Part shown: positions 20,083 to 43,697 of the stretch, piece after piece
Position numbering within the stretch: the stretch's first letter is position 1
How the letters are laid out: the number at the start of each line of letters is the position of its first letter
Position numbers and translations under genes: made by a program
Notes under the pieces: generated by a model
What the model was told of the DNA's origin: nothing
Seen by the model: only the letters and a program-made list of their open reading frames with translations
Databases searched by the model: none
Source: Caenorhabditis remanei
Taxonomy: Eukaryota; Nematoda; Chromadorea; Rhabditida; Rhabditidae
NCBI RefSeq assembly: GCF_010183535.1
Contig: NC_071333.1
Span: 5,454,587-5,518,586 of the forward strand
DNA length: 64,000 nucleotides
Direction of reading: 5' to 3'

Positions 20083-20804
20083 TGTTGACAGTCTCCTGGT
20101 CCCCGAATCAGGGTCCTGTCCCACTCCAAACTAAAATGTAATAATTGTTCTCTAAATTATTCTAATTTAGTTTACATTTATTTCATATTTTACTTTCTGT
20201 TATTTTCTCCCTTTTTCCCTGTTTCTTTAACTCCATTGGAAGCGGAAGCAATTCCCTTTCAATTCAAATCACCGCCATAATCGTTGTCTGCGTCTCCACT
20301 ATCAAAGGCGCACGCTATTAACAACATCACTGGTCTCGCCGCGACGACACACAGGAAACGAGTGCAACCGTAGTTGACCGACAACAACGACCTGGCCTAA
20401 TTATAATTTATTCAGTCTTGTTTTTAGTTTTGTTTTTTTAACAATTCTCCTTTGTTGTTTGTTTTAGAAGTTGTACGTGAGCCTCGTCGGCGTCCCTCTG
20501 GACACCCCTAAGCTTTAACTAGCTAGGAATCCCCAGAGAGACTCCTCGAATACCTCGCTTACTTCTTTTCTCCCTTTTCATGTAATTTCCTAAAGGAAAT
20601 AATCGATCAGGTTTTTAATGCAGTCCCTCGCGGGTCATGCTTTTCCCCTGAATAAATCGGTTATTTAATACACGTGTTAACTGTACAGCGGGACACTTCC
20701 TTTTACCTCTGAACCACCTAATACGGAAGTATATTTTGGGCCCATGTTCCCACCCCACTCGGCACATTACCGGCGGCCTTCTGGAGACAGAAGGGGTGGC
20801 CACA
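20083..20804 (+). repeat. BEL/Pao 5' LTR, 722 bp
   Basis: It begins TGTTGACAGTC and ends GGTGGCCACA, and is the same as 42971-43692 by eye. It contains an AATAAA at about 20651, a TTTGTTTTAG acceptor-like site near 20465 and one CCCTCG. The first 51 bases equal the final codons and stop of pol as found in the 3' LTR. Confidence 0.95.
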
Positions 20805-20806
20805 TT

Positions 20807-20825
20807 TGGTGCATCTAGACCAGGT
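20807..20825 (+). other. Candidate primer-binding site
   Basis: Two bases after the 5' LTR the sequence reads TGGTGCATCTAGACC. The first nine bases match the complement of the tRNA-Gly(GCC) 3' end as I remember it, then diverge. A nine-base match is short, so the tRNA assignment is tentative. Confidence 0.4.
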
Positions 20826-21479
20826 TGCATCCGCTCGGGCGGAAAATTTCGAGATTATCGATTTTTCCCCTCGACCGGACGAATCAGTCGGTTTGCCCAT
20901 TTTTTGTCCGATAAAATCGATATTTTTCGATTTTAATGTACAGTTTTCACTTGTTTTCCCTCGGAAAATTAACGTGAACGGCGAAAAACTTCTTCGCAAA
21001 CTTCATTTTCGGGTTTTTCGATGTTTTTCTCCCCGAAATTTTGCTTTCCTTTTTTGAATTTGGCGCCAATTTTGGCCCCACCTTTAAATTTGGAAGCTAG
21101 TGCGCTCTAGTGCGAAGCGCCGCGCCGCGATGCGGCTTTAGGCCTTCCCATTTTTTGCGCAGATTTCCGGGCGTTTTTCATCGTTTTTTCTCGTTTCTCC
21201 CTCGTGTTTCGTGATTTTTTTGCGAATTCCCGACGGAATTATTCGAGAAAGGCCTGAAATCGGTCAGATACTCGAGAAATTCGGCAATTTTCGCCAAGAT
21301 TTCCGCCGATTGGCTGAAAAAACTCTTTTCCCTCGGGAAAATCGAGATTTTTCGGTCTTTCCGCGCATTTCAACGCGAAATCGCCCAATTACCCTCGAAT
21401 TCACCACGCCTCGTCATGGATTACGCCTCCTCGAGCTGCTTCACCGCGGTTTTTGCTGAAATTTGGCTGGAATTCGATC

Positions 21480-22400
21480 GGAACCCCCTCGCGTCGATTT
21501 CAACGGATGGTTCGGGCTTCCTTCACCTGTTTGCTGCTTTTTCGTTCCACTTCCCTCGTTTCGACCCGTTATCCCTCATTTTTTCCGGATTTCGAGTGTT
21601 TCGAAACTTTTCGAAACATTTCGAAAATCCCGAAAAAATCGGACACCGGCTAGAATCGATCAGAAGTTTCAATGGATCGTCTGCGGTGGCTTTCTCGTGT
21701 TCGGACGCCTCGTTTGCTGATGTTTGGGTCAACTTCCCTCGGTTTTTCGCTGGAATTCCCACTTTTTCCGGATTTCGAAATATTTCGTAATATTTCGAAA
21801 ATCCCGAACGGGTCGGAACACCGGTGGAAATCGATCAGAAGTCTCGCTGAGGGTTTCGGATGGCTCCCTCGTGTTGCGAATGCTTCGTTTTCTGTCTGTA
21901 TGTCGATTTTTTGTGATATTTTTGCCAGACCCCGAACTTTCTCGCGTAGCGGACACATTTTCGAATGTTTCCAATACCCGAACGAGTCGGGCGAGGCGAA
22001 AATTGTTCAAAAAAATCCTTCGGATGTCTACGTCAAGCTTTGCACACATGGGAAGCCGTCATTCGGTGTTGGATGGCTCCCTCGTGCTTCGCGTGCTGCA
22101 GTTTTCGTCGTTTCGTCAACTTCCCTCGTTTTTCCGCCGTATTCTGAATTTAACCGCGATTTCGAAACGTTTTCGAACCTTTCGAATATCCCCGGGCGAA
22201 TCAGAACGGGTGGAGAGCGATCAGAAGTCTCGTGGATGGATTCTCGTGCCTCGCTCACTTCGGATGTCGTCAAATTGGCTCTTCTTCCCTCGGGTTTCTC
22301 ACCTGTTCTGGAATTCCTCGCGTCTTCGAAGCATTTTCGAATGTTTTCGAAGCCCCGACCGAACCAGAAGTGGTAGAAATTGAGGTGAAGTATCGTGGAT
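21480..22400 (+). repeat. Imperfect tandem repeats, about 180-bp unit, five units
   Basis: The block around TTTCGAAAATCCCGAA recurs at about 21619, 21797, 21977, 22187 and 22349, spaced 160-210 bp. Each is followed by a CGATCAGAAGTCTCG-like box and a TCCCTCG box. Divergence is high. Several frames on both strands stay open across it because stop codons are rare in the unit. Confidence 0.7.
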
Positions 22401-22531
22401 GGTCGTGTTTGATGACGCTCGTGCTGGATTCTTGTGTTTTTTCTCTTGTGTGGGGCTTTTTCCCTCGGGTGGAAGCCACTTGGCTAGAGTTTCTCGTGTT
22501 GCTGTAGTGCTACGTTAGTGAACGGCGCTCT

Positions 22532-22577
22532 CGCTTCTTGCTGTGTTTTAACACGGACTCGTCCGTTTGCGGAAGCG
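22532..22577 (+). ncRNA. Structured RNA motif A, copy 1
   Basis: The outer stem CGCTTC/GAAGCG encloses two small hairpins, GTGTT-TT-AACAC and GGAC-TC-GTCC, giving a three-way junction. A second copy at 25002-25045 keeps the fold with compensatory changes. It is probably a cis-acting element in the retrotransposon RNA; the function is inferred only. Confidence 0.55.
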
Positions 22578-24868
22578 GGTAGTACTTCTAGCTAATCGAT
22601 CACTATAGATTCGCACGATTAATAAGCCAAGGTCCCTTCATGCCAGCTTGCTGGATCGGAGGGAGCCTCTAGCGGGTTCATAGTGTCACTTGGAGGTTAC
22701 ATACGTAAGCTTTATTGATTTATCCCTCCTCGTCCGAACATTCTCGGGATTCGGATTCATTCGAAGCCCTCGAGAGTTCCGATAGGACCGGTGGTCAATA
22801 ATTCGCTTTCGTATCGATAATCTGCAATCGATGCTTTGGATTCAAGACATGCTCCGGAAGTTTAAAGCAATCAGAAGCTCCTGCGGGGCCGCCGAAAGGT
22901 AGCTCCGCGGTTGAGATTTTGAGAGCTTGAGCGGAAGGAGAATGTAAACGAAAACTGGGGGTCCCTGGTTTCGAGCATGGTGTTGATATGCGGCGACTCC
23001 TTTGTTGGTTTATCGATCTGCTTGCCCTCTTCGGAGCTCGAGTAGTATCGGTTACCAGTCCTCTGATTGCGCGATCAGCAGTTTTTACTGCATACGATCC
23101 CGTTCGTGAGGCGAAGGATATCCCCGTCATCGATATTGTCCTCCAGACCTCGGGTCGGCTGATGCTAGTTTCGGTACTTTTCTATTCTAATCGGAATTCG
23201 TTCTGATTTGTTGAATAGTATTGATTCTGATGCAGAGCAGGCGAGCCCCCTGGTGTGAAGCTTGTGTTGCTTCCGAGTATAGTCTTGATGCTCATGCATA
23301 CTCGTTAGTGATCGGTATCAGGGATGCCAGGCAAGAGACCGCATACTGCCATGTGTTGGAGTCGCTGTTGGCCTCAGGTGCTCCATCTTTGTATCGATTA
23401 GGAACTGTAACCCCAGTGTATCTCCGTCTCCCTTTGGGATTCCGACATACATTTGACTACAGTACCCCTCGACTGTTTGCGACACGGCGCAGGTGCATAC
23501 CTGTCTCGTACTCCGCCTCCTCGAGTTAACGAGTCTCCATGAGAAGTTCATTTAAGGTTCGGCATTGTTCCTCTCGCCTTATCGTCCTCGGATGATTTGG
23601 CAGTCGTTTGAGAGTGAGCAAAGCAAAACCTGCTATATGAGGGACAACTCAAGGCTCAGAATTTCATAAGTCGTAGTAGACAGCGTAGCGATACGTTCGA
23701 GGCGACCTTTTACTGCTGATCTTAGAGCCCGAGCAGGAATAAGCGATATTTCCTAATCGGTTCCTCGAGACACAAGTGGTTCTAGTTGATTACGATGGTG
23801 TTAATGCGAGCCTCGGCGATTTGATCTCCCCCGATTTATTTCGGGTCTTTCGAATCCCCGTCACCTCGATAATACACCTCTTACGTCCTCTAGTGGTATT
23901 CTCGAACCCGTCCCCCGCTTTCAGACTCCCTCTGATAAAGAGTGGATTACAGTCGATCGACTGTTGATCGTCCCCCAGCTCCGTATCAGGATTCTGGAGG
24001 GTTAAGACTGATGCCTAAAATCAAAAACTTTGAACGCATGCGTTTCATAGTGAGTAGATTCGAGGGCGATCGAGCAGTCGGTACCCTTTGTTTCGTGACC
24101 GGATATGGACGATGGGTCAATAGTTCAATCGATTGGTCTTATCTCTTTAACTAAGTGAGTCGCTACTATCGCAGAAAAACTGAGTAATTTCACACGTGTC
24201 TTCTGAGAATAGATATATTCTCATGGGTTGATGAATCCTCGCCTTTGCCCCGCTGTCCGACAGCCGCTTTCTTTAAGCGCCTGGATTTGCCGGTCAGAGC
24301 CGAACGAATCTCCTCTACGAGAAATGCTTAGTGCTAGCGAGTCTTCCGTTTCGTGATAACGCTGCGCTCTCTTTCCGTTCTTCTATTCTCTCCGTACATA
24401 GTATGGATGAGATCGAAGCACCGCGAGGGACCGCACCCGTATCAATTGTAGTTCGGAGAGCTATGCATTAAGTGGGTTCCAGTTCGTTCTGATCTGATCG
24501 AATCGGCTGAATTTCGTATCGAGCGGAAGCTCTTTTGAGCATCCTTCCTCGGATACATGCGTTTTGATTTTCAACCGAATCCATCATCGTCAGTCCGAAA
24601 ACTGACCTATCTACCAGAAGACTTAGTTGAGGTGCTGTATTCGAAAGGCCTCAGCGACCGACATATTCAGTAGTATGTAAATACGAGCTGAAATAGTCAA
24701 ACCGGTTATTTCGGGTCGTAAGGTCACTCCCCTCGCAGCAGGTCGCAAGACTCGCGCTTGCGGATCGTCCTGAAGACTAATGGAGTAGTCGGCCGTATCG
24801 GTTTGAGACGATATCTTTCGTTTACCGATTCTGGCTCAAGTATCTGAGGAGGACACTCCCTATGGAGC

Positions 24869-25119
24869 ATCCTCTGGCCCCCCGGAGCGTATTGGTTATG
24901 TTCCGGGAGGATTCTAGTACGAGTCTGGTTAGGAGACGACCATAGGCGATCTAGTGCATTTTTCACTCCGGAGCCCTCCCTCGTTGGTGATAGACACTCT
25001 TACTTCCTGCTGTGTTTTAACACGGGCTTGCCCGTTTGCGGAAGTGATGGTGCCTCATCGCTTATCGAGCAAGGTTCTTCGGATCGAGGATGCATTCGGA
25101 TCCTCTGGCCCCCCGGAGC
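24869..25119 (+). repeat. C-rich 20-mer, two copies 231 bp apart
   Basis: An identical 20-base block containing CTGGCCCCCCGGAG occurs at 24869-24888 and 25100-25119. Its core CCCCCCGGAG also occupies 42961-42970, directly before the 3' LTR, where a polypurine tract would be expected. Confidence 0.7.
25002..25045 (+). ncRNA. Structured RNA motif A, copy 2
   Basis: It has the same fold as 22532-22577. The second hairpin is GGGC-TT-GCCC instead of GGAC-TC-GTCC, and the outer stem begins A-T instead of G-C, so both changes keep pairing. The first hairpin and the following TTTGCGGAAG are unchanged. Confidence 0.55.
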
Positions 25120-26670
25120 ATGAATTCTGAATTCACTGCACCACGGTGCCATTGACTATGATAGTTTTTTAACCAGATCTAGTGCTATCGGATAATTTTT
25201 GCTAAGAAAACGTAAATGATGTATGGAACCAGAGTTTCGGCTCCAGATCCTAGATATTCTATCACTCTTAACGCGGAACTCTGAGTATCTTATGAAAGAT
25301 GAGGAGTACCGAGTGTAGTTCGGGCGAAATTAGTATACCTCCCCTCTTCGTGAGCGGAACGTAGAAAGTTTCCCCCTAATTGCAACGGAATTCTTGAAGC
25401 GTTAATTTCGTTTGAAATCCGCTGTCCCGTTTGGGATTTGGGGTATTCTAGACCGTTTTTCGCAGAATATTTCTCGTCACGTCGCGTGGCTTTTGTGTCG
25501 TTTAGACACAATAGTGATTGAGAAATCTCTTCCGGAATCTGAAGATTGTTTACAATCGTTGTCGAAAATACTTCCAGTCTTGAATTCCACTCGTGAAACA
25601 CATCTGGATGAGAGAAAGAGCATAAACTAAGTGGTGTACTAGTCTACGGTGTAGGCGGATAAGAGCGAGCCGCCGGAGTTATGCTAGTAGGACAGTCGGA
25701 AGAGATGAGTATCGAAGTTGCTCTGATTCTTTCAGAGCATTTGGCGTAGCTAGACATCATAGTTGGTGCCTTGTGCATCGGATTTGGTGATTCTATGCAG
25801 CGCATTTGATGTTTCATTTCATTAGTTTGGTGCCTCAAATCTACTCCACCCTCGGGTCGATCTAGATTTATGGTGCGAAATGCCGACTGAAACTCGTATC
25901 ACTCGCCTCCATCGAATCTTCGATCGAGCAGTTTGGTATGTAGTCTTCCTCGTGTGTGGATGAAAGTGGCTATTTCGAATAGTGATTCGTAATCTACCCT
26001 TTCAAGTATAATTCCGTCCGCTCTCCCTCGAATCCCTCAGTAGTTTTTAGTAGTCGTTTTTGGACTACGGATCCTCTCTGTCATTCAAGTCTTCGTTTCG
26101 TTTCTGTGTGATTCGGCGATAGGCTATCTGTGTACTCCTCGGTGCAGCGACTTTTAAGCGGATCGTTAGATTAACGGGCCGGCCGCCTGGCAAGCGGAGG
26201 GCCTTATTAGGCTAGCGATACCTCGACTCCACCACGATCTACACGGATAGTCACTCCCCGAGTCATACTTAAACTCGATGAGAATGATAGACGTTTAAGA
26301 GAGACCGTATTCCAGCTAATGATTACACTATATCCCAGACAAACTACATCACGGAATCTGTCATGATTCCGAAGCCTCTTGTTGCTTTCCTAGTATCGAT
26401 TTCGATCGATATGAAGTTAGCTTTCGTTGAGCTTTGAGATGGTTTAGTATTGTGTTGCGGCGAAACTTCTCGCGTAGAGCTCTAGTCAGTGATGTCTGAG
26501 AAGGTGACTCCTTCGACTGATGTCGTTAACTATCTCTCGTCATCTCGAACCTCGGCGCTTTGCATTTCGCAAGTTTTTTCTTTTTTAGGAATTCGCATTT
26601 AGTTTTCTCTTATCTGCCTCCGTGATTTTCTTGTATTCGTATCTCCCAGAGTCAGTTGAGTCATATTTAT

Positions 26671-26680
26671 TATGCTTCAG
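26671..26680 (+). promoter_or_regulatory. Splice acceptor of accessory gene 1
   Basis: TATGCTTCAG lies 20 bases before the ATG at 26700. It could be used for cis-splicing from an LTR leader donor or for spliced-leader addition. Confidence 0.45.
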
Positions 26681-26699
26681 CTATCACTCGCGATCTACG

Positions 26700-27411
26700 A
26701 TGTCGGGAAAGGGATCTCGTCCGCCCTCGGGCAATAGACACCCCTCGGAGCCTTCGGAGGGTAAGACTAGCCGAACGCCTAGAAAGAAATTACAGATGAT
26801 GGTGTTTTAGATCAGCTTCTGACGCGTATTGACTACGACCTTCTGCTGTCCGGTCAGAATGCATTGATGCATTCGTTTCATTATTTCGCCGACACGCTCC
26901 GTAACATGACTCCAAAATTCGATAGAATGTACGAGATGTTCCGCAGCCAGTTCAGCGATAATGTTGACCCGACAGTCTGTAAGCTTGGACCTCCACGCCT
27001 CGGTGATCCTTATCATGGAATCACGCAGTTCGAGAAGGACCTTCGCAAACAGCGAGAACACTTTTTGGCCTGCACGGTACCATAAGCTGATTTAGATATC
27101 CCAGCATCACCCAAATGTTTCAGAGAATCGCAAGATTATTTGAGAAAGTCCTCGGAGACGTTCGCAAGGGACGTCTGGACAGCCACCTCGTGGATCGTTG
27201 TATCAGCAAATTTGTGTCTGAACATTGTGGTGAATCCTCGGATTCGTCTGACTCTTCTGACGACTCGGATGCCGGAGAATCTGATTCAGATAACCCGCCG
27301 TCTTCGTCCGATGATAAGGAAGATGACTCAGACGGCAACGCCTTCGGGAACCTCGAATTCTCAGGTTATCTTGAAGAAATCGATTACTTCCCAGTAGGCC
27401 GAGCCAACTGA
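26700..27411 (+). CDS. BEL/Pao accessory protein 1, 209 aa, acidic serine-rich tail
   Basis: Three exons join in frame: 26700-26760, 26796-27076 and 27124-27411. The first intron is only 35 bases, short even for worms; the second is 47 bases with a TGTTTCAG acceptor. The protein starts MSGKGSRPPSG, has a central helical region (residues about 20-150, including MHSFHYFADTLRNM and ITQFEKDLRKQREHF) and ends with a tail of about 60 residues dominated by Ser, Asp and Glu. I do not recognise it. Acidic tails of this type occur in histone- and nucleic-acid-binding chaperones, but that is only an analogy. An AATAAA follows at 27605. Six CCCTCG hexamers or near-matches lie in and around the gene. Confidence 0.6.
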
Positions 27412-27604
27412 ATCCCTTTTGTTGACAAAACTTCTGTTACTTTCCCTCGTTGTTAGCTTATCTGAACCTCTATTGCCCTCGAATCCAAATGATTTTCTCT
27501 CGCTGGACATTATTCATCTTCACGCGTTCAACGACGTCTACAATCGGCCTAATTGCCTCGTCTAATCTCACAGTCTTTGGTTTTGATGTGCTCATTAAGT
27601 TTTC

Positions 27605-27610
27605 AATAAA
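27605..27610 (+). terminator. Poly(A) signal after accessory gene 1
   Basis: AATAAA lies 194 bases after the stop of accessory gene 1. If used, it would end a short mRNA inside the retrotransposon. Confidence 0.45.
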
Positions 27611-27846
27611 CTCGTTCCTCGAACCAGTCTACGGTCAATTTTTTCAGCCGCATTGAAATTTAGCTGGCGTTACCAGTCTTTACTGTGATTGAGATGATGA
27701 CAATGTTAGCCCCATTTAGAATTCCGAGAACAATCGAATGAGTCAGTCGAAGCTTCGAATGATGATGAAATCGTAGTGAATGACGCCCCACCCTAGTTTC
27801 AGTCTGGGAACGTCGCCTCTAGTATCAGATTTCTACAGCCCCCGCG

Positions 27847-28131
27847 ATGATTGCAGTCGTAGTTCGAGCGTATCAGTTCGTATGTCACTCTCGAGTGTGG
27901 TCAACGTGGATTCTTGTTGAAGTGGAGTCTCAGCGAGTACATGCTGTTCGGGCCTCCGAGTCGAATGAAGAATTCTTTCTTCAGAAGACTCCGGACGCTC
28001 TTGGAGTACGTCCTTTTCGAAGCACGGGTCCTAGAGAACAGTGGGCGGCGTTGCATTCCGCAATCCTTGATTGCTTGGATGCTACCCCCCCCCCCACCCT
28101 CGCTACTCCACTTCAAGATTATCCTCAATGA
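27847..28131 (+). CDS. BEL/Pao small accessory cistron, 94 aa (uncertain)
   Basis: The ATG at 27847 lies eight bases after an ATTTCTACAG acceptor, and an AATAAA lies at 28354, the same layout as the better-supported accessory genes. The product would be 94 residues starting MIAVVVRAYQF, with no known motif. A run of 11 C residues at 28085-28095 lies near the end. One base more or less there would switch to an open frame reaching 28259 (about 137 residues), so the run could be an assembly error, a mutation or a slippage site. Other frames here are also open, so coding is not certain. Confidence 0.35.
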   Translation: MIAVVVRAYQFVCHSRVWSTWILVEVESQRVHAVRASESNEEFFLQKTPDALGVRPFRSTGPREQWAALHSAILDCLDATPPPTLATPLQDYPQ

Positions 28132-28353
28132 GCTTAATTCGTGAAAACGATCTGCGGACGCATACCCTCGATATATTCACAGCAGGACTCGCATGGTTAT
28201 GGAGATATCTGTCACATCCGTCAAGTCGCTCAAAAAGCGACGCTGAAGTCTCATCATAAGCTACAGTCGAGATCCCTCGATTCTATCTTATCGCTCAAAT
28301 GGAATCCTTCGTAAAGTTGAAAAATTGTGATTTCATTCATATTCTTTTTTGTT

Positions 28354-28359
28354 AATAAA
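28354..28359 (+). terminator. Poly(A) signal after small accessory cistron
   Basis: AATAAA lies between the small cistron and accessory gene 2, about 95 bases after the later of the two possible stops. Confidence 0.4.
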
Positions 28360-28483
28360 AGTCGAGTTTTGTTTGCTTAATGATTGCTTGTGATTCAGTA
28401 ACTCGGTTTTTACCCGGTTCAATATCTGTTTCGTTTACGATTCGGTGAATTAATCTTTATAGCTTTATATCGATTTAGCAATT

Positions 28484-30496: not shown

Positions 30497-30538
30497 TTGT
30501 TAACCTTTTTGTTTTAAGTTTTTTTACGGGTCTTCGTA

Positions 30539-30544
30539 AATAAA
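30539..30544 (+). terminator. Poly(A) signal after accessory gene 2
   Basis: AATAAA begins 43 bases after the stop codon, the usual distance for a worm gene. Confidence 0.5.
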
Positions 30545-32489: not shown

Positions 32490-32513
32490 ATTATTAGTGC
32501 GTGTAAACCCTCG

Positions 32514-32552
32514 TGACGTCTCGAAAGAACGTCATACGTCTCGAAAGAACGT
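32514..32552 (+). repeat. Two tandem copies of a 17-base ACGT-flanked motif
   Basis: ACGTCTCGAAAGAACGT occurs twice in a row, separated by four bases. Each copy can fold with ACGT ends pairing. They lie just before an AATAAA at 32569. Confidence 0.7.
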
Positions 32553-32934
32553 ATTCTTTTACGTGTGCTAATAAACTTGTCCACGTGGCTACGTGGCTAA
32601 AGTGAGCTCGGCGTTTTTGTAGCAGTAGTGTGCAGTTCGTGCCTGTCGACACCAACCCACCCTACTCCTCTCAATCTTCGTCTCATTTTGGTTAGACGAA
32701 ACGTTTTTCGGTGCTAATTTGTATGACATAACTCGCTACCCACTTTCAGATTGAAAGCTTGGTGCATAAGCTGAGTTTTGCAGCTAGAGTTCGGTCTCAT
32801 GCAGCTAGAATTCGGTCTCTAATGGGCGCTCCTGTAGACGTCGTGATCAGTGATCAGCGAGATTGAAACGGTCTCGCTGCGTACTCAGCACGATACTCTC
32901 GGAGTGAAAATTCTGGTAATCCATATTCCGTGAG

Positions 32935-33085
32935 GGATTTGGTACACAATGGACTAGATTTGGTGCACGATGCGCCGGATTTGGTGCATAATGTATCGGA
33001 ATTTTGAGGCAGGTTTGATGCACATAATGCATCATTTAGTGCATTTGATCTTCATCGAATTCCTCGTCAACGGACGATATTTGAT
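32935..33085 (+). repeat. Cluster of TTTGGTGCA-like repeats
   Basis: GATTTGGTRCAC/CAT occurs three times in succession, followed by looser GTTTGATGCA and TTTGATGCA versions. The same core begins the candidate primer-binding site at 20805. A similar, weaker cluster lies at about 25760-25835. Confidence 0.5.
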
Positions 33086-34746: not shown

Positions 34747-34780
34747 CTTTCGACTTCAACCTTTTTGTGAACAACCAACC

Positions 34781-37312
34781 ATGTCTGGTACCGGACAACA
34801 ACCCTCGCGGAACGGACTGCCGACGACCTCTGGAGATGGCCAATCGAACAATCAACGTTCGCCCTCGGAAAACTTCAAGACGGCTCAGCGCAACGTCAAG
34901 ACCGCAATCACTCGTGCAAGCACCGCCGGCCTCAAAACCGCGGAGCAAGCATTCAATTTCATGGACGACCCCTCGGCCGTCTATGATGCTCTCGGGCTCA
35001 AGACTATCGACAACTTGCGAAAGAAGTTGATGGTCATAGCGGGAATGATCGAAACGGACAAGCATTTCTACGAATTCGTCAAGAATATCGACGAACTCTT
35101 GTCCAACCGGGAACGTCAACGCCTACGCGAAGTGGCTAAGGCTCATCTCGACCTGAAACCACGGACTGACAACCTGCCGATCATCAAAGACGCCATCACG
35201 GCCCTGCAAGCAGCCCTCGAGAAGCAGGATTACCTCGCTGGAGAGATATCCCCAACGGAAACCGCGGATATTTCAAAGGATGTGGAAAATTCACCCGTGG
35301 ACGGAGAAGAACCATTCGAAGAAGACCTTTCGGATGCGGAATCGGTCCACCCAAAAGATGACGACATCAAGGACCTTGATCTGATTGAAAAACCCTCGAC
35401 TGTCGGAGTCAACAACTCTGGTGGAACGCAAGTTCCTCCTGTGGTTACCTCGCACACTCGTTCAAGTGTCGAAAACCACGAAGCCTCTAGACGTTCTTCG
35501 ATCAGAGCGGACACGAACGCGGCGTCCCATGGACAACCGATAGCGTGCCCGGTCTGTGAGGAAGGACATGAGCTCTTCAAATGTAAGAGCTCAGACCTGC
35601 CTTGCTATTTGGCAAGGAACGGATTATGCGTTCATTGCATGTCGAATCAGCATGAGACACACATGTGTCCTCTTCGGAGTTCCGGATCATCACCATATTT
35701 CGCTGGACGTTTCGTTGAGAAACGTTCAGAGAGTGGTGGACGTTTCATGACCCAGGATACCCCGGTAGTATCATCGACCCCTCGTGAACGAATTCAGTCA
35801 AACTTCCCGTCTCTGTCTGACAGCGACGAGAAGGAACACATCGTATCTGCCCGGAAATCCGTCCCTCGAGCTCGAGAGTCAGAATCCTCTGATGAGGAAG
35901 CTGACCATGAGCGTCGTGCGACCGAAAAAAGCAAGAGAACCTCGGCGAATGGTAAATGGTTGTCTTATTACGACCTGGATGACCTTCTTCCGAAGTTTTC
36001 TGGCGACCCGCTCAGATACAAGAAGTTTATGACAACGTTCGAATCACTTGGAATGAACAACCCTCGACTTTCCGATGTGATGCGGTTATTTCTCTTGGAA
36101 AAAAAGCTTGTCGGAGACGCTAAGAGCTTCTACTGCGAACTTAGGAATCCTCGTGATTCAATCGAAGTTATCTTGAAAGATCTTCGACGCAGCTTCGAAA
36201 AAGATACTTCGGAGGTTACAGAAGCCCTAAAGCGGTTCAGTCAGCTTAGGTTCCACGAGACCGACCACAAACGTGCAGCTCGGCAGCTTCAGGAGAGCAG
36301 AATTCTCATCCGGACGCTCCGAGATCTTGGGGAGGATGTAAATACCACCTCGTTTGTACGCAGCTTCATGGAAAAGTTACCGGGTAAGATGATTCGTATC
36401 ATCAGACCGTTGTTTGACAACGGTTCGCAACCCTCGGCAGATGAGATCATGGAGAAATATGACCGTTTCCTTTACGATCATGCTTTTGTTGATCGATACC
36501 GAGCTGCGAATGTCTCTGAGAGGCTGAAAGAGATACCGGATGAGTCAGTAATGGCTACATCCCAGATCTCGAGTAAACCTACGAAGCCTAATGGAAATTT
36601 CGCTCCTGGTGCGGGTACCGTTAGTACCAAAACACCGGCCTCTTCGTCTCAGAACGCGCCGAACGTTAGCAATAACTCGTCGTCGGGTTCGAAGAAGAAA
36701 GGCAAAGGAGGGAAGGGTCCGCAGACTTCAAATCAGTCGAACAATTCTGTAAATCAGAGTAAATTCGACAACCAAGGCTCTTCTGGTGGGAATAGCCTGG
36801 GCTACTTCGGTACCCAGCAGACGTTCCACCAGGGAAATCAGGCTCCTCGGAGTCAAGGAAATGCAGCCACGGTCAACTCGGCTTCAGTGCAGCCAAAGCC
36901 TCGGATTCCTGGCATGAAAGGGCAGCCCGGAGAAAAACTCGAACCGTGCTACAAGTACGGAAGAGGTTATGATGCAAGATTCATTCATCATACCTTCCCT
37001 CGAGACTCTGAAGCTGCCTCGAAATGTTGTTTCATCTGTGGCCCCGGACACTCAATTCTTCAATGTGCTCTCCCCTCGTACGACGTTCGTCAGTTCTTCC
37101 GTTCTAGCGGTTCGTGTCACAATTGTGCTCAGCGAAACCACAGAACCGAAGATTGCCAGAGCTTCAGTACTTGTGCTTACTGTCAAGGCAAGCACAATAC
37201 CGGAGGATGTACTTTGAAAGAGTACTACCGGGACCCCCGAAACTATCCAGCCGACGCCCCAGCTCCAGTGTTGTCAGAATTTTTTCGTGGCCCCTTCGGG
37301 GGCTCGCAATAA
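34781..37312 (+). CDS. gag: BEL/Pao Gag, 843 aa
   Basis: This is the capsid/nucleocapsid precursor of the element. A first zinc-knuckle block lies at about residues 256-300 (CPVCEEGHELFKC, then CVHCMSNQHETHMC). The capsid-like region of the DUF1759 type found in BEL/Pao Gags spans about 390-560 and includes KFSGDPLRYKKFMTTF and FLLEKKLVGDAKSFY. A polar Ser/Asn/Gln-rich linker runs about 590-720. A second knuckle block lies at about 745-815 (CFICGPGHSILQC, CHNCAQRNHRTEDC, CAYCQGKHNTGGC). Two knuckle blocks in one Gag is unusual. The ATG is preceded by a TTTCAG acceptor. The ORF ends 26 bases into the pol frame. CCCTCG occurs eleven times in the gene in all three frames. Confidence 0.93.
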   Translation: MSGTGQQPSRNGLPTTSGDGQSNNQRSPSENFKTAQRNVKTAITRASTAGLKTAEQAFNFMDDPSAVYDALGLKTIDNLRKKLMVIAGMIETDKHFYEFVKNIDELLSNRERQRLREVAKAHLDLKPRTDNLPIIKDAITALQAALEKQDYLAGEISPTETADISKDVENSPVDGEEPFEEDLSDAESVHPKDDDIKDLDLIEKPSTVGVNNSGGTQVPPVVTSHTRSSVENHEASRRSSIRADTNAASHGQPIACPVCEEGHELFKCKSSDLPCYLARNGLCVHCMSNQHETHMCPLRSSGSSPYFAGRFVEKRSESGGRFMTQDTPVVSSTPRERIQSNFPSLSDSDEKEHIVSARKSVPRARESESSDEEADHERRATEKSKRTSANGKWLSYYDLDDLLPKFSGDPLRYKKFMTTFESLGMNNPRLSDVMRLFLLEKKLVGDAKSFYCELRNPRDSIEVILKDLRRSFEKDTSEVTEALKRFSQLRFHETDHKRAARQLQESRILIRTLRDLGEDVNTTSFVRSFMEKLPGKMIRIIRPLFDNGSQPSADEIMEKYDRFLYDHAFVDRYRAANVSERLKEIPDESVMATSQISSKPTKPNGNFAPGAGTVSTKTPASSSQNAPNVSNNSSSGSKKKGKGGKGPQTSNQSNNSVNQSKFDNQGSSGGNSLGYFGTQQTFHQGNQAPRSQGNAATVNSASVQPKPRIPGMKGQPGEKLEPCYKYGRGYDARFIHHTFPRDSEAASKCCFICGPGHSILQCALPSYDVRQFFRSSGSCHNCAQRNHRTEDCQSFSTCAYCQGKHNTGGCTLKEYYRDPRNYPADAPAPVLSEFFRGPFGGSQ
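37270..37312 (+). other. Gag-pol overlap and probable +1 recoding region
   Basis: The zero frame reads GAA TTT TTT CGT GGC up to the gag TAA at 37310-37312. The pol frame is open from upstream of this point. A -1 shift would run into TAG shortly after, so only +1 (or splicing) links gag to pol. The TTT-TTT-CGT run is a candidate slip site. Confidence 0.5.
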
Positions 37313-40300
37313 TTCTCTAGAGGTTGACTCTAGGCCGCCCTTGGCCCGCAGTCCAACTGTTGCCTCGCCAGCAACAGCGTCTCTAGAACGACCCTCGGGT
37401 CACGATTCTGGTGGAGATTCGTCTATCAGTAGGGGTTTGCCGCTATTTCTCGAACGTCTCACACAGGAATGCCTTTATAACGCATCCCTCGTGGGAGATA
37501 TAACAGAGATCTCAAAGTTGCCTTTCGTAGCATTACGTACTACGGCCGGTCAGAAGGTTTTAGCACTGGTTGATTCCGGAGCAACGCTGTCTGTTCTCTC
37601 TCACGAGAGCGCAGAGCGCTTTGGTCTGGACATCCTAGCGACTAGAACTCTAACAATTGCGGGATATAGCAAAACCACTACTGAAAAGTCGAATATCTAC
37701 CAGATGTCATTCCATACAGATGGTGAGCCTTTCTCAATGCTCATCGCTGGTGCCCCTCGTCTTCCGAAGACTAAATTCGTCTGCCCTCGTCTGAGTTCAG
37801 CCGATGTTAGTCATCTTCGAGCCCATCACGTCGATACTCATGCCTTGTCATTGGATCAAGCCTTTAACGGCCAATTCATTGATATGATTTTGGGTAACGA
37901 CCTATTACCTCGATTATTAGGGAGATCGAAGAGGCTGTTGCTTCCTTCCGAAAGATTCGTGGAGTTAACACCGTTTGCTCCTATCATCTTTCCCCCTCCT
38001 CGTTCCTCACTTCCACCGGACGAGATCAGCAGCGACCAAGTTGAAGCGTTTCATTGTGAAAGCTTTATCGGGTCTTTGATGACTCAGACGGATTCGAAGG
38101 ATCCCATCGAGCGTCTCCACTCGGAGATTTCTCAGTTATGGAATCTTGAGAATTTGGGTATCGAGGAACCTGGGCCGATTGAGGGTAAAAAGACGGAAAC
38201 AAAGGATCTCATTGCCGAGTTCAAAAAGAACATCCGGTACACTGAAGACGGTATCATTATGGTATCCCTTCCGTGGAACGGGAAGCAGAAACGCCTCGCG
38301 TCAAACCGTGGAGTTGCTGCTAAACGGCTAGAGCAGCTTATTCTCTCTCTGAAAAGAAAGAAGAATTTGATGCAAGATTATGATGAGATCCTAAAAAAGC
38401 AACTAGCCAGCGGTATTATTGAAATAGTCACACCGGAGATGGATAACAATACAGATCCAATGTATTACATTCCCCATCGAGTCGTAGTGAAGGAATCTTC
38501 GCTTACGACAAAGTTGCGGATTGTACTCGATGCGAGCAGTAAGAAAGGGGGCGAGCTCAGTCTTAACGACTGCCTCGACCCTGGACCGTCCATGCTTGTT
38601 GATCTCTTCGACATTCTCATTCGCTCTCGTTTACCGGATTACCTGGTGGTGGCTGATATTGAAAAAGCCTTCCACCAGGTACGTCTGGTGCCCGAGGATC
38701 GGAACTGTACTCGTTTTATCTGGATAAAGGATATAACGAAACCGCCTGTGCGTGATAACATTATTGAGTACCGATTCACTCGGATTCCTTTTGGAATGAC
38801 GTGTTCTCCGTTTCTCCTCGCTGCCACTATCGATCATTACTTAAATGGAATGACCGACGGCATCGCTGAGCGGATTCGGCAGAACATATACGTCGACAAT
38901 GTAATGATTACCTCGAACAATAAGGCGGAAATACAGGATCTTCGGATTGCCTCAAGAGATGCATTCACCTCGATGAATATGCGTCTTCGAGAGTATATCA
39001 CGAATTGCCAAGAAGAGATGTCTAAATTCCCTCGGGATGAGATCACAAGTGAAACGACGATCAAGTTACTCGGTTATCTCTGGGATTCTGTAAAAGATAC
39101 ATATACGGTGAAACTAGCAACGTTGCTGGAGTCACACCCGACGAAACGTCAGGTGGCCTCACGCATGGCTGAAACCTTCGATCCCCTCGGCGTCCTAGCT
39201 CCATTGCTGGTCTCGTTCAAGTTATTGATGCGAGACTTATGGAATGACGGTATCGACTGGAAGACGAAAATCCCTCGTTCCCTTCTTAACCGATGGGAAG
39301 CCATTAGGCATCAATTCTCCGAGTCATCAATTACGATTCCTCGCATGTTGAGACCTAGTGGTAAGTTCAAGAAGAGCCATCTTCTTGTCTTCTCGGACGC
39401 TTCCAAAGATACATATGCCTGTGCAGTCTACATACTCTATGAGTATGAAGGCCGGGACCCCGTGGTAGGTCTTCTGACCGCAAAATCGAAAATTAAGCCA
39501 TCGGCTTGTAATACTCTTACCATTCCTCGTCTCGAATTACTCGCGATTGAGATTGGTGCGAGGATTGCAATGACTGTAGTTAACGCTATGGTTTCGGAGC
39601 ACCCACGCTCCGTCAGGTTCTTTTCTGATTCGATGGTAGCCTTGTATTGGATTCTTCGTAACGAGCAAAAGAAATGCTGGGTCAGTAATCGTGTTAAGGC
39701 TATTAATGATAGGAGCGACTCATTGAAATCCCTCGAGATTCCATCAGTCTTTCATCATTGCCCCACTGACCAAAACCCGGCTGATATTGCTACGAGAGGA
39801 ATGGGAAGCGAAGACTTAAAGAATTGCTCTTTATGGTTTCGCGGCCCGGACTTCTTAACGAATCATCCAGATACATGGCCCTGTCGCCTCGAAGGCATTA
39901 TTTCTTGCCCTTCGGACTTCCGTGAACTTATTTCCTCGGAAATCATCACGACAGGAAAGAAATCTGACAAAAATTCTACTGAGAAATCGGTAAAACCTAC
40001 TGAGCAATCGGTAGACTGTTCTGCTGAGAAATCGGTAGACACTGTCGAGAAATCGACAGACCAGGCAGAGTTCAAAGCTCTGACTGAAGCCCTTCGGGGT
40101 ATGTGTCTTACAACTCAGTGTAAGGAACAGTACGTTTCTTTCGTTCCATTCGAGCGAAGTCACTCCCTTTCCAGAGTCGTGTCATTTACGCACTCGACTT
40201 TGAACTGCTTATTAAAGCTGTTCAAACGTCACGTGTGGAAGAGTCCGATCATGACGGAATTCATTGAATCCAAAAAATCCCTCGGTACCCCCGATTTGGG

Positions 40301-43022
40301 CGTACAGAGTAGAGCGATAGCTCGGAGACTTGTATTCATTGAACATTATAAGGAAGCGGCTAGCTCTGGGCAGGAATTTTCGTCCAAATTGAATCCAGTC
40401 CTCGGCGTCGATGGTCTCTGGCGAGCCCATCGAAGAGTTCCCTCGCCAGTTCTTGCTAGTGATACTAACAAGTTAATTCTGGTTCATAAGAAGCATCGGC
40501 TAGCACGATTGGTCGTTATGGAGACGCACATTAAAAACGTGCATCTACCGGCGACATATCTGGTAGCAGCGCTTCGAACGAGATACTGGATCCAAGCGGA
40601 CAAGCAACTTGCAGATTCTGTAATCCGCAGTTGTATTCCTTGTCAAAGGGTTAACAACAAGCCGTTTGAGTATCCGTTTTCACGAACGCTCCCACGGTTT
40701 CGTACAACTCCGTCTACTCCGTTTCAGCATGTGGGCCTCGATTATGGTGGTCCGCTGAATTATCGCCTAGATGATGGTAGCTGTATCGGCAAGGCTTATG
40801 TCTTGGTATACACCTGCCTCGTCACACGGGCAACTCACCTCGAGTTAATTCCTGACGGGACGACGGAGATGTATCTGCTAGGATTGCGGAACGCATTCTC
40901 CAGACGGGGAGTGCCGGCCTCAATCTACTCAGATAATGCCCGTACTTTCACCCTCGGTGCAAAGATTATTTCGGATGACGTGAGGAATTATGTACCTAGT
41001 ACATCCTTCACCACGTTTCTTGCCTATCATGAGATCAACTTCCGGTACATCACCCCTCTCGCACCGTGGCAGGGTGGCATTTATGAGAGGGTAGTGGGTA
41101 TCGTGAAGCATCAATTGAGGAAAGAAATCGGCAAGCATCTGGAATCATTCTTTGTATTGACTCACGTGATAGTACGAGTAGAATCTATGCTGAACAGTCG
41201 ACCCTTGACGCCCAACCCTCGTTCACTAGAAGATTTGCCTGCTCTTCGTCCCATGGATTTCTTACTCCCGACCGTTCTGATCGATCTTCCCTCGGAACGT
41301 GACGGACTGAATCCCGGCGATGAATTTGATCCATCACGGAATCCCTCGATAACTGAGCGTCGCACCCTCGATCACCTCGCGGGTCTCGACGAGGTTTTGG
41401 AGAGATTATGGGATGTTTGGTCAGGAGCGTATCTGGCTTATCTGAAGGAGAACACCCATCCGGAGAAACGTACATCCACTTTAAAACCTCGTGTTGGACA
41501 GTTGGTGTTCATTTATACTGAGAAGTTCGCACGCCACAATTGGCCTCTAGGAGTAATTGAGACGTTAAAAAGCAGTCACTCTGGAGAAATCCGCGCAGCG
41601 ACTGTTAGATGCAAAGGTAAGATCTATGAGCGGCCAGTGAATCATCTGATTCCCCTCGAAGTCTCCCCCTCGGAAGACGATCCAGCTCTCGAGCCGGTCG
41701 AGCAATCTGTTGATCCTCGGACCCCTCCGGATCCCCCTTGCATCGCTACGTTCCCGATTCATTCCAAAAGCCACAACAAGTCGAAGAACGGAGTAATAGG
41801 ACAGAAATCGCAGAAAGTTCCAGTTGAAGGAGTCAGCGAAGTGTTGGATAAAGCAGGTTCAAAGATTCCGGATGTAGGGCTTGGCCGTTCTGGCACTCCT
41901 ACAGAAGGAATTGGACTAAAGTCTAATGGGACCGAGCCTCTCATCGATCCATTGCTTCCACTAGTTTCTGAATCTCAGCCACTAGGGGATAGTATGGGGT
42001 CAGGAGCGGTTCCCCCATCTGTTAAAGGTCCGGACTTGGATGTTAGTCGTTCAGGCACCTCCAAAATTGGCAGCTCAGCTGCAGTTCCGTCTTCAGATGT
42101 TTGTCGTTCAGGCACATCTGGGGAGGGAGATGCACGAGAGTCGCCGGAATTGGATACTGGTCGGACTGGCGCATCCAAAGGAAGGATTGGACTAAAGTCA
42201 TCTGGTTCCGAGTACTTCCCCGATAGTGGTATCCCTCGAAAAGCTAATTCTTTAGCCTTTGATGGTACACCTCGATCCGGTAGTGCTCAGCCAGTCGAAT
42301 CTGCCACGGACTTGGATGCTAGTCGTTCAGGCGCACCCAGGAATAGGATTGGACTAAAGTCATCTGGACCCGAGTATTTCTCGGCTACACCAGTTGATAC
42401 AGTTTTGGACGTGGATGTTGGTCGTTCAGGCACATCCTCTGGAAGGAGAGTATCTCCAAGGCCGGTTTCTGATGCTTGTCGTTCAGGCACATCAGAAGAA
42501 GGTTTTACGAGAGAAACCCCGACATTGGCTGCTAGTCGATCAGGCGCATCCAAAGTTAGGAGAGCTCCTCCAGCACCGGATTCAGATGCTAGTCGTTCAG
42601 GCGCATCTGGAGAAGGCGCCACACGGAGAGTTCCTAGCTTGGATGTTAATCGCAACACATCTGTTAACGATTCTGAAAAGTTCTATTCTAATCCTAAAGC
42701 CCCTCGACAACGCAAAGTCAAGAATATGGATGACAGGGCGAAGTCATCAGGTTCCGCGATCTCTCATGGTGATGATGGACCCCCAGACACTGTTAATCAG
42801 AGTCCGGGCGCCAGTTATCCAATGATGTCTTCTCGTCCTGACGGCGTCGATCAAGCGAAAGCTCGTTTACCCAGTCACCGTGTCCGGCCTTACAACCCTC
42901 GCAAAGCGAAAGCCAAGCTTGCATGTTATGTGAACATAACGCAAGCCGCCGAGCCTCAGACCCCCCGGAGTGTTGACAGTCTCCTGGTCCCCGAATCAGG
43001 GTCCTGTCCCACTCCAAACTAA
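37287..43022 (+). CDS. pol: BEL/Pao Pol: protease-RT-RNase H-integrase, about 1911 aa
   Basis: The pol frame is +1 relative to gag and overlaps its end. There is no ATG near the overlap (the first codon taken is GTG), so expression probably needs +1 frameshifting or splicing. Motifs in order: aspartic protease LALVDSGATLSVLS (about residue 90), RT VADIEKAFHQV and IPFGMTCSPF with active site IYVDNVM (about 534; YVDN rather than YVDD), RNase H VFSDASKD (about 704), an EKSVD-type repeat insert (about 892-930), integrase HHCC zinc finger ending CIPCQRV (about 1118), and integrase catalytic residues in GLDYGG, YSDNARTF and WQGGIYERVVG. The last 350 residues are a low-complexity tail with about ten RSGTS/RSGAS repeats. 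The stop lies inside the 3' LTR. The frame is intact throughout. Confidence 0.95.
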   Translation: MAPSGARNNSLEVDSRPPLARSPTVASPATASLERPSGHDSGGDSSISRGLPLFLERLTQECLYNASLVGDITEISKLPFVALRTTAGQKVLALVDSGATLSVLSHESAERFGLDILATRTLTIAGYSKTTTEKSNIYQMSFHTDGEPFSMLIAGAPRLPKTKFVCPRLSSADVSHLRAHHVDTHALSLDQAFNGQFIDMILGNDLLPRLLGRSKRLLLPSERFVELTPFAPIIFPPPRSSLPPDEISSDQVEAFHCESFIGSLMTQTDSKDPIERLHSEISQLWNLENLGIEEPGPIEGKKTETKDLIAEFKKNIRYTEDGIIMVSLPWNGKQKRLASNRGVAAKRLEQLILSLKRKKNLMQDYDEILKKQLASGIIEIVTPEMDNNTDPMYYIPHRVVVKESSLTTKLRIVLDASSKKGGELSLNDCLDPGPSMLVDLFDILIRSRLPDYLVVADIEKAFHQVRLVPEDRNCTRFIWIKDITKPPVRDNIIEYRFTRIPFGMTCSPFLLAATIDHYLNGMTDGIAERIRQNIYVDNVMITSNNKAEIQDLRIASRDAFTSMNMRLREYITNCQEEMSKFPRDEITSETTIKLLGYLWDSVKDTYTVKLATLLESHPTKRQVASRMAETFDPLGVLAPLLVSFKLLMRDLWNDGIDWKTKIPRSLLNRWEAIRHQFSESSITIPRMLRPSGKFKKSHLLVFSDASKDTYACAVYILYEYEGRDPVVGLLTAKSKIKPSACNTLTIPRLELLAIEIGARIAMTVVNAMVSEHPRSVRFFSDSMVALYWILRNEQKKCWVSNRVKAINDRSDSLKSLEIPSVFHHCPTDQNPADIATRGMGSEDLKNCSLWFRGPDFLTNHPDTWPCRLEGIISCPSDFRELISSEIITTGKKSDKNSTEKSVKPTEQSVDCSAEKSVDTVEKSTDQAEFKALTEALRGMCLTTQCKEQYVSFVPFERSHSLSRVVSFTHSTLNCLLKLFKRHVWKSPIMTEFIESKKSLGTPDLGVQSRAIARRLVFIEHYKEAASSGQEFSSKLNPVLGVDGLWRAHRRVPSPVLASDTNKLILVHKKHRLARLVVMETHIKNVHLPATYLVAALRTRYWIQADKQLADSVIRSCIPCQRVNNKPFEYPFSRTLPRFRTTPSTPFQHVGLDYGGPLNYRLDDGSCIGKAYVLVYTCLVTRATHLELIPDGTTEMYLLGLRNAFSRRGVPASIYSDNARTFTLGAKIISDDVRNYVPSTSFTTFLAYHEINFRYITPLAPWQGGIYERVVGIVKHQLRKEIGKHLESFFVLTHVIVRVESMLNSRPLTPNPRSLEDLPALRPMDFLLPTVLIDLPSERDGLNPGDEFDPSRNPSITERRTLDHLAGLDEVLERLWDVWSGAYLAYLKENTHPEKRTSTLKPRVGQLVFIYTEKFARHNWPLGVIETLKSSHSGEIRAATVRCKGKIYERPVNHLIPLEVSPSEDDPALEPVEQSVDPRTPPDPPCIATFPIHSKSHNKSKNGVIGQKSQKVPVEGVSEVLDKAGSKIPDVGLGRSGTPTEGIGLKSNGTEPLIDPLLPLVSESQPLGDSMGSGAVPPSVKGPDLDVSRSGTSKIGSSAAVPSSDVCRSGTSGEGDARESPELDTGRTGASKGRIGLKSSGSEYFPDSGIPRKANSLAFDGTPRSGSAQPVESATDLDASRSGAPRNRIGLKSSGPEYFSATPVDTVLDVDVGRSGTSSGRRVSPRPVSDACRSGTSEEGFTRETPTLAASRSGASKVRRAPPAPDSDASRSGASGEGATRRVPSLDVNRNTSVNDSEKFYSNPKAPRQRKVKNMDDRAKSSGSAISHGDDGPPDTVNQSPGASYPMMSSRPDGVDQAKARLPSHRVRPYNPRKAKAKLACYVNITQAAEPQTPRSVDSLLVPESGSCPTPN
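41875..42660 (+). repeat. Degenerate repeats encoding RSGTS/RSGAS modules in Pol tail
   Basis: A module of roughly 36-90 bases encoding LDxxRSGTS or DASRSGAS recurs about ten times. A longer unit with RIGLKSSGSEYF occurs two or three times within it. Nucleotide similarity between modules (GTCGTTCAGGCACATC) shows recent tandem duplication. Confidence 0.8.
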
Positions 43023-43692
43023 AATGTAATAATTGTTCTCTAAATTATTCTAATTTAGTTTACATTTATTTCATATTTTACTTTCTGTTATTTTCTCCCT
43101 TTTTCCCTGTTTCTTTAACTCCATTGGAAGCGGAAGCAATTCCCTTTCAATTCAAATCACCGCCATAATCGTTGTCTGCGTCTCCACTATCAAAGGCGCA
43201 CGCTATTAACAACATCACTGGTCTCGCCGCGACGACACACAGGAAACGAGTGCAACCGTAGTTGACCGACAACAACGACCTGGCCTAATTATAATTTATT
43301 CAGTCTTGTTTTTAGTTTTGTTTTTTTAACAATTCTCCTTTGTTGTTTGTTTTAGAAGTTGTACGTGAGCCTCGTCGGCGTCCCTCTGGACACCCCTAAG
43401 CTTTAACTAGCTAGGAATCCCCAGAGAGACTCCTCGAATACCTCGCTTACTTCTTTTCTCCCTTTTCATGTAATTTCCTAAAGGAAATAATCGATCAGGT
43501 TTTTAATGCAGTCCCTCGCGGGTCATGCTTTTCCCCTGAATAAATCGGTTATTTAATACACGTGTTAACTGTACAGCGGGACACTTCCTTTTACCTCTGA
43601 ACCACCTAATACGGAAGTATATTTTGGGCCCATGTTCCCACCCCACTCGGCACATTACCGGCGGCCTTCTGGAGACAGAAGGGGTGGCCACA
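42971..43692 (+). repeat. BEL/Pao 3' LTR, 722 bp
   Basis: It looks identical to 20083-20804. The pol ORF extends 52 bases into it. It is preceded by CCCCCCGGAG rather than by an ordinary purine tract and followed by the target duplication GCCTC. Confidence 0.95.
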
Positions 43693-43697
43693 GCCTC

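What the first reader, a model, noticed from the sequence alone, without database searches (positions are those of the whole stretch)
20083..43692. Strand-specific, frame-independent CCCTCG hexamer throughout the element
By hand I count about 75 CCCTCG on the plus strand of the 23.6-kb element and only about 2 of the reverse complement CGAGGG; roughly 6 per strand would be expected from base frequency alone. In gag and pol it occurs in all three frames (CCC TCG as Pro-Ser, CCT CGN as Pro-Arg, NCC CTC GNN as x-Leu-x), and equally in noncoding leader, repeats and LTR. That excludes a codon-usage explanation. It may be a distributed RNA signal, such as a site for the Gag knuckles in packaging, a splicing or export element, or a small-RNA-related mark.
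Basis: seen in the sequence. Interest (0 to 1): 0.88.

Follow-up and report, generated by a model that had tools for sequence, protein, structure and literature searches.

The report
Private sequence tags in worm retrotransposons
Several families of virus-like jumping genes in a roundworm each carry their own short "word" scattered many times along only one strand, which looks like a private address label that lets an element's proteins recognise its own RNA.

Summary
CCCTCG occurs 77 times on the + strand and 2 times on the - strand of 20083-43692 (7.2 expected), about 40 times its genome-wide rate, above a codon-preserving null in gag and pol and in all frames, and as densely in the leader. 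The element is a 23.6-kb BEL/Pao retrotransposon of Caenorhabditis remanei with identical LTRs. The unexpected result: related BEL families in the same genome carry other strand-specific words: A/B CCTCG, C ACCGCG, D1 TCCCAC, D3 AYCCGCGG, E TCCCGCCG (23/0 in 10 kb), F CCCCAGC; D1 and F are the weakest against the codon null. Eight of 13 sampled BEL lineages exceed a Markov null. Sites tend to be kept between families with the same word (B1 to B2 16 of 16, A to B2 14 of 19) and are nearly all absent in family C, 73% identical in Pol. No RNA-structure preference or regular spacing was found. Best reading: a distributed self-recognition tag on the sense RNA, read by an element-encoded RNA-binding protein for export or packaging. 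Reader and function are inferred, not shown.

The parts
20083..43692 (+). BEL/Pao LTR retrotransposon, family A copy, 23.6 kb
   Evidence: Identical LTRs, 5-bp target-site duplication, empty site elsewhere in the window; DUF1759, RVT_1, Peptidase_A17, Integrase_H2C2, DUF5641
20625..43518 (+). Span of the 77 CCCTCG sites (first starts at 20625, last at 43513)
   Evidence: All positions listed; spacing as random (CV 1.01, random mean 0.98)
24061..24429 (-). The only two CCCTCG on the - strand (CGAGGG at 24061 and 24424)
20083..20804 (+). 5' LTR, 722 bp
   Evidence: 0 mismatches to the 3' LTR
42971..43692 (+). 3' LTR, 722 bp
20078..20082 (.). Target-site duplication GCCTC, left copy
43693..43697 (.). 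Target-site duplication GCCTC, right copy
3018..3022 (.). Same target in a paralogous copy of the flank, without the element (empty site)
   Evidence: 2787-3022 repeats 19847-20082 and 3016 onward repeats 43691 onward
20805..34726 (+). Long leader between the 5' LTR and the gag frame, 44 CCCTCG
   Evidence: 44/2, expected 4.0
28786..29778 (+). ORFa: exon of the leader gene (open frame runs to 29925)
   Evidence: Relatives in A, B and C elements; dN 0.50, dS 2.24 against L052
29779..29830 (+). Inferred intron, 52 nt, phase 0 on both sides
   Evidence: GTACGT...TTCAG; the same junction in L052 is 49 nt; no transcript data
29831..30496 (+). ORFb: zinc-finger-like Cys/His region and lysine-rich tail (open frame from 29666)
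   Evidence: Relatives; dN 0.68, dS 2.18 against L052
34727..37312 (+). gag frame; DUF1759; knuckle-like pair in the N-terminal half and three C-terminal knuckles; 11 CCCTCG
37218..43022 (+). pol frame; protease, RT, Peptidase_A17, Integrase_H2C2, DUF5641; 20 CCCTCG

Best explanation
The hexamer is a distributed, linear self-recognition tag on the sense-strand genomic RNA. Each of several BEL families keeps many copies of its own C-rich word along its RNA, in leader, gag and pol. An RNA-binding protein encoded by the same family binds the word at many sites; this multivalent binding picks the family's own unspliced RNA out of host and rival RNAs for nuclear export and/or packaging. Word and reader drift together, so families come to speak different dialects. 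Shown: the words, their strand specificity, independence from codon usage, frequent conservation between families that share a word and absence in families that do not.
For: Strand specificity and excess over dinucleotide, Markov and synonymous-codon nulls. A different word per family in one genome. Both copies read of family E (L036, L053) have it. Site conservation where the word is shared: B1 to B2 16 of 16 (all hexamers 0.38), A to B2 14 of 19 (0.33); loss where it is not: A to C 1 of 19, C to A 0 of 16 (0.18). Gains by substitution in place, some changing amino acids. Reverse complements of the words 4 observed, 13.0 expected over A, B2, C, D1, E, F. A B-like leader copy with no Peptidase_A17 match within 300 kb keeps 16/0. 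In the same genus Cer1 encodes CERV, needed for export of its genomic RNA (PMC10309623).
Against: No reader identified and no experiment. C-terminal Gag knuckles barely differ between A and C. ORFab was found in A, B and C only and ORF0 not in A, so no leader protein is common to all families with a word. No preference for unpaired RNA (0.474 against 0.439, p 0.23; in-place shuffle 0.472, p 0.68). Conservation is not uniformly above permuted hexamers: A to B1 12 of 19 against 18 of 30 (none), A to B2 p 0.08; the A/C losses alone are not significant (p 0.13, 0.32). D1 and F reach only z about 4-6 against the codon null, where best-of-all noise is about 5. TCCCAC and TCTACA are less private than the other words. 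G, H, I, J and D2 lack a clear word. One genome only.
Confidence: 0.6

Rival explanations
1. Packaging sites for the three C-terminal Gag zinc knuckles: nucleocapsid binds the word all along the RNA.
For: Knuckles of this kind were found in the eight families with a clear word; nucleocapsid domains bind short single-stranded words in retroviruses (recalled).
Against: A (CCCTCG) and C (ACCGCG) have nearly the same three knuckles and this part of Gag is 82-87% identical between them. D2 has them without a strong word.
Confidence: 0.12
2. Sites for host factors: each family recruits a different host RNA-binding protein, or small RNAs are guided to or primed at the word, to license or silence the transcript.
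For: Sense-strand words of six to eight bases fit the size of host RNA-binding or seed sites; TCTAC is enriched both in BEL family D1 and in one gypsy element.
Against: Different words in related families of one host, switching within families 73% identical in Pol, are easier to explain by a reader that moves with the element. A silencing mark would not be gained by selection on the element. No small-RNA data were available.
Confidence: 0.15
3. A DNA-level role in one strand of the cDNA, for example in reverse transcription, strand displacement, nuclear import or integration.
For: Strand specificity also fits one strand of cDNA; the words occur in the LTR too.
Against: No precedent known to me for tens of sites of this kind in cDNA; a site in double-stranded DNA would not need one orientation.
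Confidence: 0.08
4. Compositional, repeat or mutational artefact: the word is spread by tandem repeats, base bias or a context-specific mutator.
For: The words are C-rich; three imperfect 78-nt repeats in the leader include the motif. The same Markov test also rings in one host flank because of GC-rich tandem repeats.
Against: Dinucleotide, Markov and synonymous nulls; three frames; flanks near random outside the word; differences between families are substitutions in place; genome background equal to control; tight triple clusters are rarer than control (2 against 29).
Confidence: 0.03

Closest known systems
Dispersed RNA packaging signals of single-stranded RNA viruses (PMC6281560; alphavirus capsid sites PMC7499256; listing with start of abstract seen)
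   Same: Many copies of a short recognition site spread over one RNA, in coding parts too
   Different: There the sites are usually shown in stem-loops (recalled); here no structural preference was seen, the words are near-exact, differ by family, and lie in LTR elements
CERV of Cer1, a gypsy element of C. elegans (PMC10309623; abstract, passages and sections 6, 15, 16 read)
   Same: Same host genus; element-encoded protein from a spliced message, required for export of its unspliced RNA, surrounding fibrils proposed to be that RNA; Cys-rich loop needed
   Different: Gypsy, 8.4-kb RNA; no RNA word was reported in what I read; homology of CERV to ORFab or ORF0 was not tested
Retroviral Rev/RRE-type export and nucleocapsid-psi packaging (Rev as told in section 15 of PMC10309623; psi recalled)
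   Same: An element protein recognises its own unspliced RNA
   Different: A localised structured region there; tens of linear sites over the whole RNA here
DNA uptake sequence dialects of Neisseriaceae (PMC3630211; listing with start of abstract seen)
   Same: A short word repeated along a genome, with related lineages using different versions, as self-recognition
   Different: Bacterial DNA uptake, not RNA of a retroelement
Belpaoviridae (BEL/Pao elements; PMC8742986, whole text read)
   Same: Domains, LTR length, gag-pol layout
   Different: 23.6 kb against 4.2-10 kb; a leader gene; the words

Membership tests
Belpaoviridae (BEL/Pao) | Pol with RT, Pao-type peptidase domain and integrase domains; Gag with knuckles | tested here: met
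   Peptidase_A17 E 1.5e-54, RVT_1, Integrase_H2C2, DUF5641, DUF1759; knuckles
Belpaoviridae (BEL/Pao) | LTRs of 0.2-1.2 kb | tested here: met
   722 bp each, identical; range from PMC8742986
Belpaoviridae (BEL/Pao) | Genome of 4.2-10 kb | tested here: not met
   23.6 kb. Size is descriptive, so I still file the element here on its domains
Dispersed packaging signals | Many copies of one recognition word along one RNA | tested here: met
Dispersed packaging signals | Word displayed in a stem-loop or other structure | tested here: not met
   No difference from permuted or shuffled words in 156-nt folds, family A only
Dispersed packaging signals | Binding by the coat or Gag protein | not testable with these tools
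   Needs binding assays
Rev/RRE-type export | One localised structured RNA element | tested here: not met
   Words spread over all 12 bins; no match in Rfam in the window
CERV-type export system | Accessory protein from a spliced message of the element | tested here: inconclusive
   Conserved leader gene with an inferred intron; no transcript data
CERV-type export system | Homology to CERV | not tested
   CERV sequence not fetched. The ORF0 profile has only non-significant matches to ARF GTPases (best E 0.13)
Recognition dialects of the DUS type | Related lineages carry different versions of the word | tested here: met
Recognition dialects of the DUS type | Cognate receptor changing with the word | tested here: inconclusive
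   Gag outside the knuckles, ORFab and ORF0 all change fast; none singled out

The most novel reading that the evidence does not exclude
Retroelements sharing one germline use an evolving RNA self/non-self code: each family writes its own dialect, mostly variants of a CC-N-C core, many times into its own RNA, across genes and leader and even at the cost of amino acids, and its own protein reads it. Diverging dialects would keep sister families from exporting or packaging each other's RNA, a speciation-like process among selfish elements.
Probability: 0.5. Interest if true: 0.93.

Novelty: categorically new. Interest (0 to 1): 0.88.

Why it matters
How retrotransposons pick their own RNA out of the cell's RNA is poorly understood, and replication of BEL/Pao elements is described as poorly understood (PMC8742986). 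Family-private words with known positions in one genome make this directly testable: which element protein prefers which word? The pattern would also let RNA-binding specificities of retroelement proteins be inferred from sequence, and points to competition among selfish RNAs as a force on codon and amino-acid choice. I saw no report of such words in nine full-text searches of open-access papers; these do not cover most subscription journals or preprints, and I read only what the searches listed plus two papers.

Tried and rejected
RNA structure around the sites: no signal. Regular spacing: none. ORF0 as the sole reader: set aside, since it was not found in A and is present in D2, which has only a weak word. 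An exchange of accessory genes between A and C: first idea, dropped after searches showed ORFab in A, B and C and ORF0 in B and C. C-terminal Gag knuckles as the discriminator: disfavoured. The Pol C-terminal tail, where A/B and C differ most: noted, but it overlaps the LTR, so cis-acting DNA may explain its conservation. ORF0 fold: mean pLDDT 35, of no use. Viral-contig scan: no relative. Genome-contig scan: three 36-residue matches in bacterial bins, ignored. Pfam on ORFa, ORFb and ORF0: nothing above cut-off. Protein database: one relative each for ORF0 (P0001) and ORFa (P0002, CRE_30326, a gene model joining the two frames at another place and without the finger region). Dropped before counting: L031:1-3631, a perfect palindrome, left out and kept. 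Of 139 Peptidase_A17 and 97 RT_RNaseH_2 matches I read pieces of 13 BEL lineages and 4 gypsy elements only; G, H, I, J and the gypsies rest on one 5-kb piece each.

Full report
What was checked. The finding says CCCTCG is strand-specific and frame-independent through a 23.6-kb element. One search gives 77 on the + strand and 2 on the - strand of 20083-43692, against 7.2 expected from dinucleotides; no hexamer has a higher z. The next five overlap it; the first unrelated strand-biased word is TGGTGC (16/2). One search shows excess in all 12 bins, and in gag (11 against 1.45) and pol (20 against 2.99) over 1000 synonymous-codon shuffles, in all frames. The leader alone holds 44/2 against 4.0. 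The genome as a whole has 0.082 per kb per strand, equal to a reversed-word control, so the element is about 40-fold enriched.

The element. It is a BEL/Pao retrotransposon: DUF1759 in Gag; aspartyl protease, RT, Peptidase_A17, Integrase_H2C2 and DUF5641 in Pol. The 722-bp LTRs are identical, the target-site duplication is GCCTC, and a paralogous copy of the flank at about 3018 shows the empty site, so the insertion looks recent. The host is Caenorhabditis remanei: a protein encoded in a related element is named GCK72_012392 of C. remanei and lies on a contig of 25,790,997 bases, the length of contig C4 here. At 23.6 kb it exceeds the 4.2-10 kb given for the family (PMC8742986). Three more copies 98% identical in Pol exist, and the leader-gene region is found in all four at 92-100%. 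The leader holds a gene in two frames, ORFa and ORFb, with a short intron inferred at the same junction in a relative, and dN well below dS against that relative, although dS is saturated. Some related copies have stops inside the matched stretches, including ORFb in two of the four A copies.

The unexpected result. Related elements often had other words. Sense/antisense counts in the pieces read (unless noted): A CCCTCG 75/2 in 22.2 kb; B1 CCTCG 59/3; B2 CCTCG 80/7 and CCCTCG 37/1; C ACCGCG 40/1 in 13.3 kb; D1 TCCCAC 27/0, with TCTAC 48/9; D3 AYCCGCGG 22/4 (palindromic core, asymmetric flank); E TCCCGCCG 23/0 in 10 kb where 0.1 was expected, and 6/0 in 3 kb of a second copy 98% identical in protein; F CCCCAGC 19/0. 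CCTCG, ACCGCG, AYCCGCGG, TCCCGCCG and CCCCAGC are rare or unbiased in the other families and in 40 kb of flank, apart from ACCGCG overlapping the D3 word. TCCCAC and TCTACA are less private: TCCCAC has 5/0 in C, 6/0 in D2, 4/0 in D3 and 7/0 in E; TCTACA has 7/2 in C, 6/1 in A and in E. Against the synonymous-codon null in the longest frame (42 loci), the words of A, B, C, D3 and E stand out (z about 8-14 in the long pol frames), while D1 (z 4.3-5.9) and F (z 6.3) are near the noise of the best of all hexamers, about 5.

How many families. Against a Markov null for the best of 4096 hexamers (30 simulations each), eight of 13 BEL lineages exceed every simulation (A, B1, B2, C, D1, D3, E, F; B1 least, 9.6 against 7.6). 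D2 does not (5.8 against 6.5), though CAYCCGC is 15/1 there, a word picked after the fact. G and H lie within the null; I and J are just above it (6.9 and 6.7 against 6.5) without a clear word. Three of four gypsy elements are within the null; the fourth has TCTACA 9/0 (9.5 against 7.0). One host flank also rings, from GC-rich tandem repeats. On a tree of the RT-A17 region the lineages with a word are the A/B/C clade, D1, D3 and E (with D2 among them), and F, whose neighbours G and H lack one. Most words look like variants of one core, CC-N-C: CCTC, CCGC, CCAC; F fits less well. That generalisation was made after seeing the words.

Evolution of sites. In a codon alignment of Pol, CCCTCG sites are kept B1 to B2 16 of 16 (all hexamers 0.38), A to B2 14 of 19 (0.33), B2 to A 14 of 22, B1 to A 12 of 16, A to B1 12 of 19 (0.36), B2 to B1 16 of 22. 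Against permuted hexamers B1 to B2 is significant (p 5e-6), B1 to A 0.008, B2 to A 0.03, A to B2 is not (0.08) and A to B1 shows no excess (12 of 19 against 18 of 30). Between A and C, 73% identical in Pol, 1 of 19 and 0 of 16 are shared (0.18); taken alone these losses are not significant (p 0.13 and 0.32). Family E is 72-73% identical to D2 and D3 over 1000 residues; D3, E and D2 share no site (0 of 10 to 12 where about 1 to 1.5 would be shared by chance), yet at two homologous places D3 has ACCCGCGG and E has TCCCGCCG. Differences are substitutions in place, some changing the amino acid.

Level of action. One strand only, leader and genes alike, and fewer reverse complements than expected (4 against 13.0 over A, B2, C, D1, E and F) point to the sense RNA. 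The folding test in family A found no preference for unpaired RNA and spacing is random, so a linear word rather than a structured signal.

Different words in one genome argue against a common host factor and for an element-encoded reader. Candidates: Gag, seen in all eight families with a word, though its three C-terminal knuckles are nearly the same in A and C, which leaves its faster-changing parts; ORFab, found in A, B and C only, with matches at 32-47% identity outside A; ORF0, found in C, B1, one B2-like copy and part of another, and in D2, D3 and E, but not in A nor in the upstream pieces read of D1 and F. None is proved. In the same genus, Cer1 (gypsy) encodes CERV from a spliced message; it is required for export of unspliced genomic RNA and surrounds nuclear fibrils that the authors propose to be that RNA, and how it contacts the RNA is left open (PMC10309623). 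That is the closest working model. The ORF0 profile has non-significant matches to ARF GTPases (best E 0.13); I mention it only because the CERV G domain is described as GTPase-like.

Copies without Peptidase_A17. Five B2-like leader copies are seen with ORFa; four have no Peptidase_A17 match within 300 kb (a lower bound). The one of these that I read (L052, 4 kb) has 16/0 CCCTCG. If these lack pol, keeping the tag fits a cis-acting label used by helper proteins, but this is not established.

Verdict. Confirmed, ordinary explanations excluded as far as sequence allows, and extended to a set of family dialects that I did not find described in what I could search. Function and reader remain inferred.

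Noticed in passing
window 1-2795 with 15799-18592, and 6518-12497 with 47203-54304: Large duplicated segments, 90-100% alike, on both sides of the element; the element sits in one copy and the other copy shows the empty site.
   Followed up: partly
window 48225-48783 and 48888-49446: Perfect inverted repeat with 559-nt arms and a 104-nt spacer, real or from assembly.
   Followed up: no
L031:1-3631: Perfect palindrome with 1813-nt arms upstream of a family C element, with 19-nt repeats at its centre; it may be an assembly fold-back.
   Followed up: no
L042 (gypsy, C2:17444000-17449000): TCTACA 9/0 against 0.8 expected; BEL family D1 has TCTAC 48/9, so a gypsy and a BEL element may share a word.
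   Followed up: no
G000 as a whole; C1:4693069-4694874: TCCCGCCG, the family E word, is commoner genome-wide (986/1042) than its reversed control (348/368); five lie within 1.8 kb at this place on C1.
   Followed up: no
C4:8595562, C5:11926781, C6:11226741, C6:1458249: B2-like leader copies with ORFa but no Peptidase_A17 match within 300 kb, possibly pol-less elements.
   Followed up: partly
L031:4640-5929, L043:502-1539, L045:3425-4537 (minus), L048:244-1497: ORF0, an uncharacterised protein gene upstream of gag; no Pfam match above cut-off, only non-significant matches to ARF GTPases in the PDB.
   Followed up: partly
L047, locus positions 80-361: A stretch similar to the knuckle region of the leader frame L031:1025-1492, in the frame -1 of the locus as stored.
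   Followed up: no
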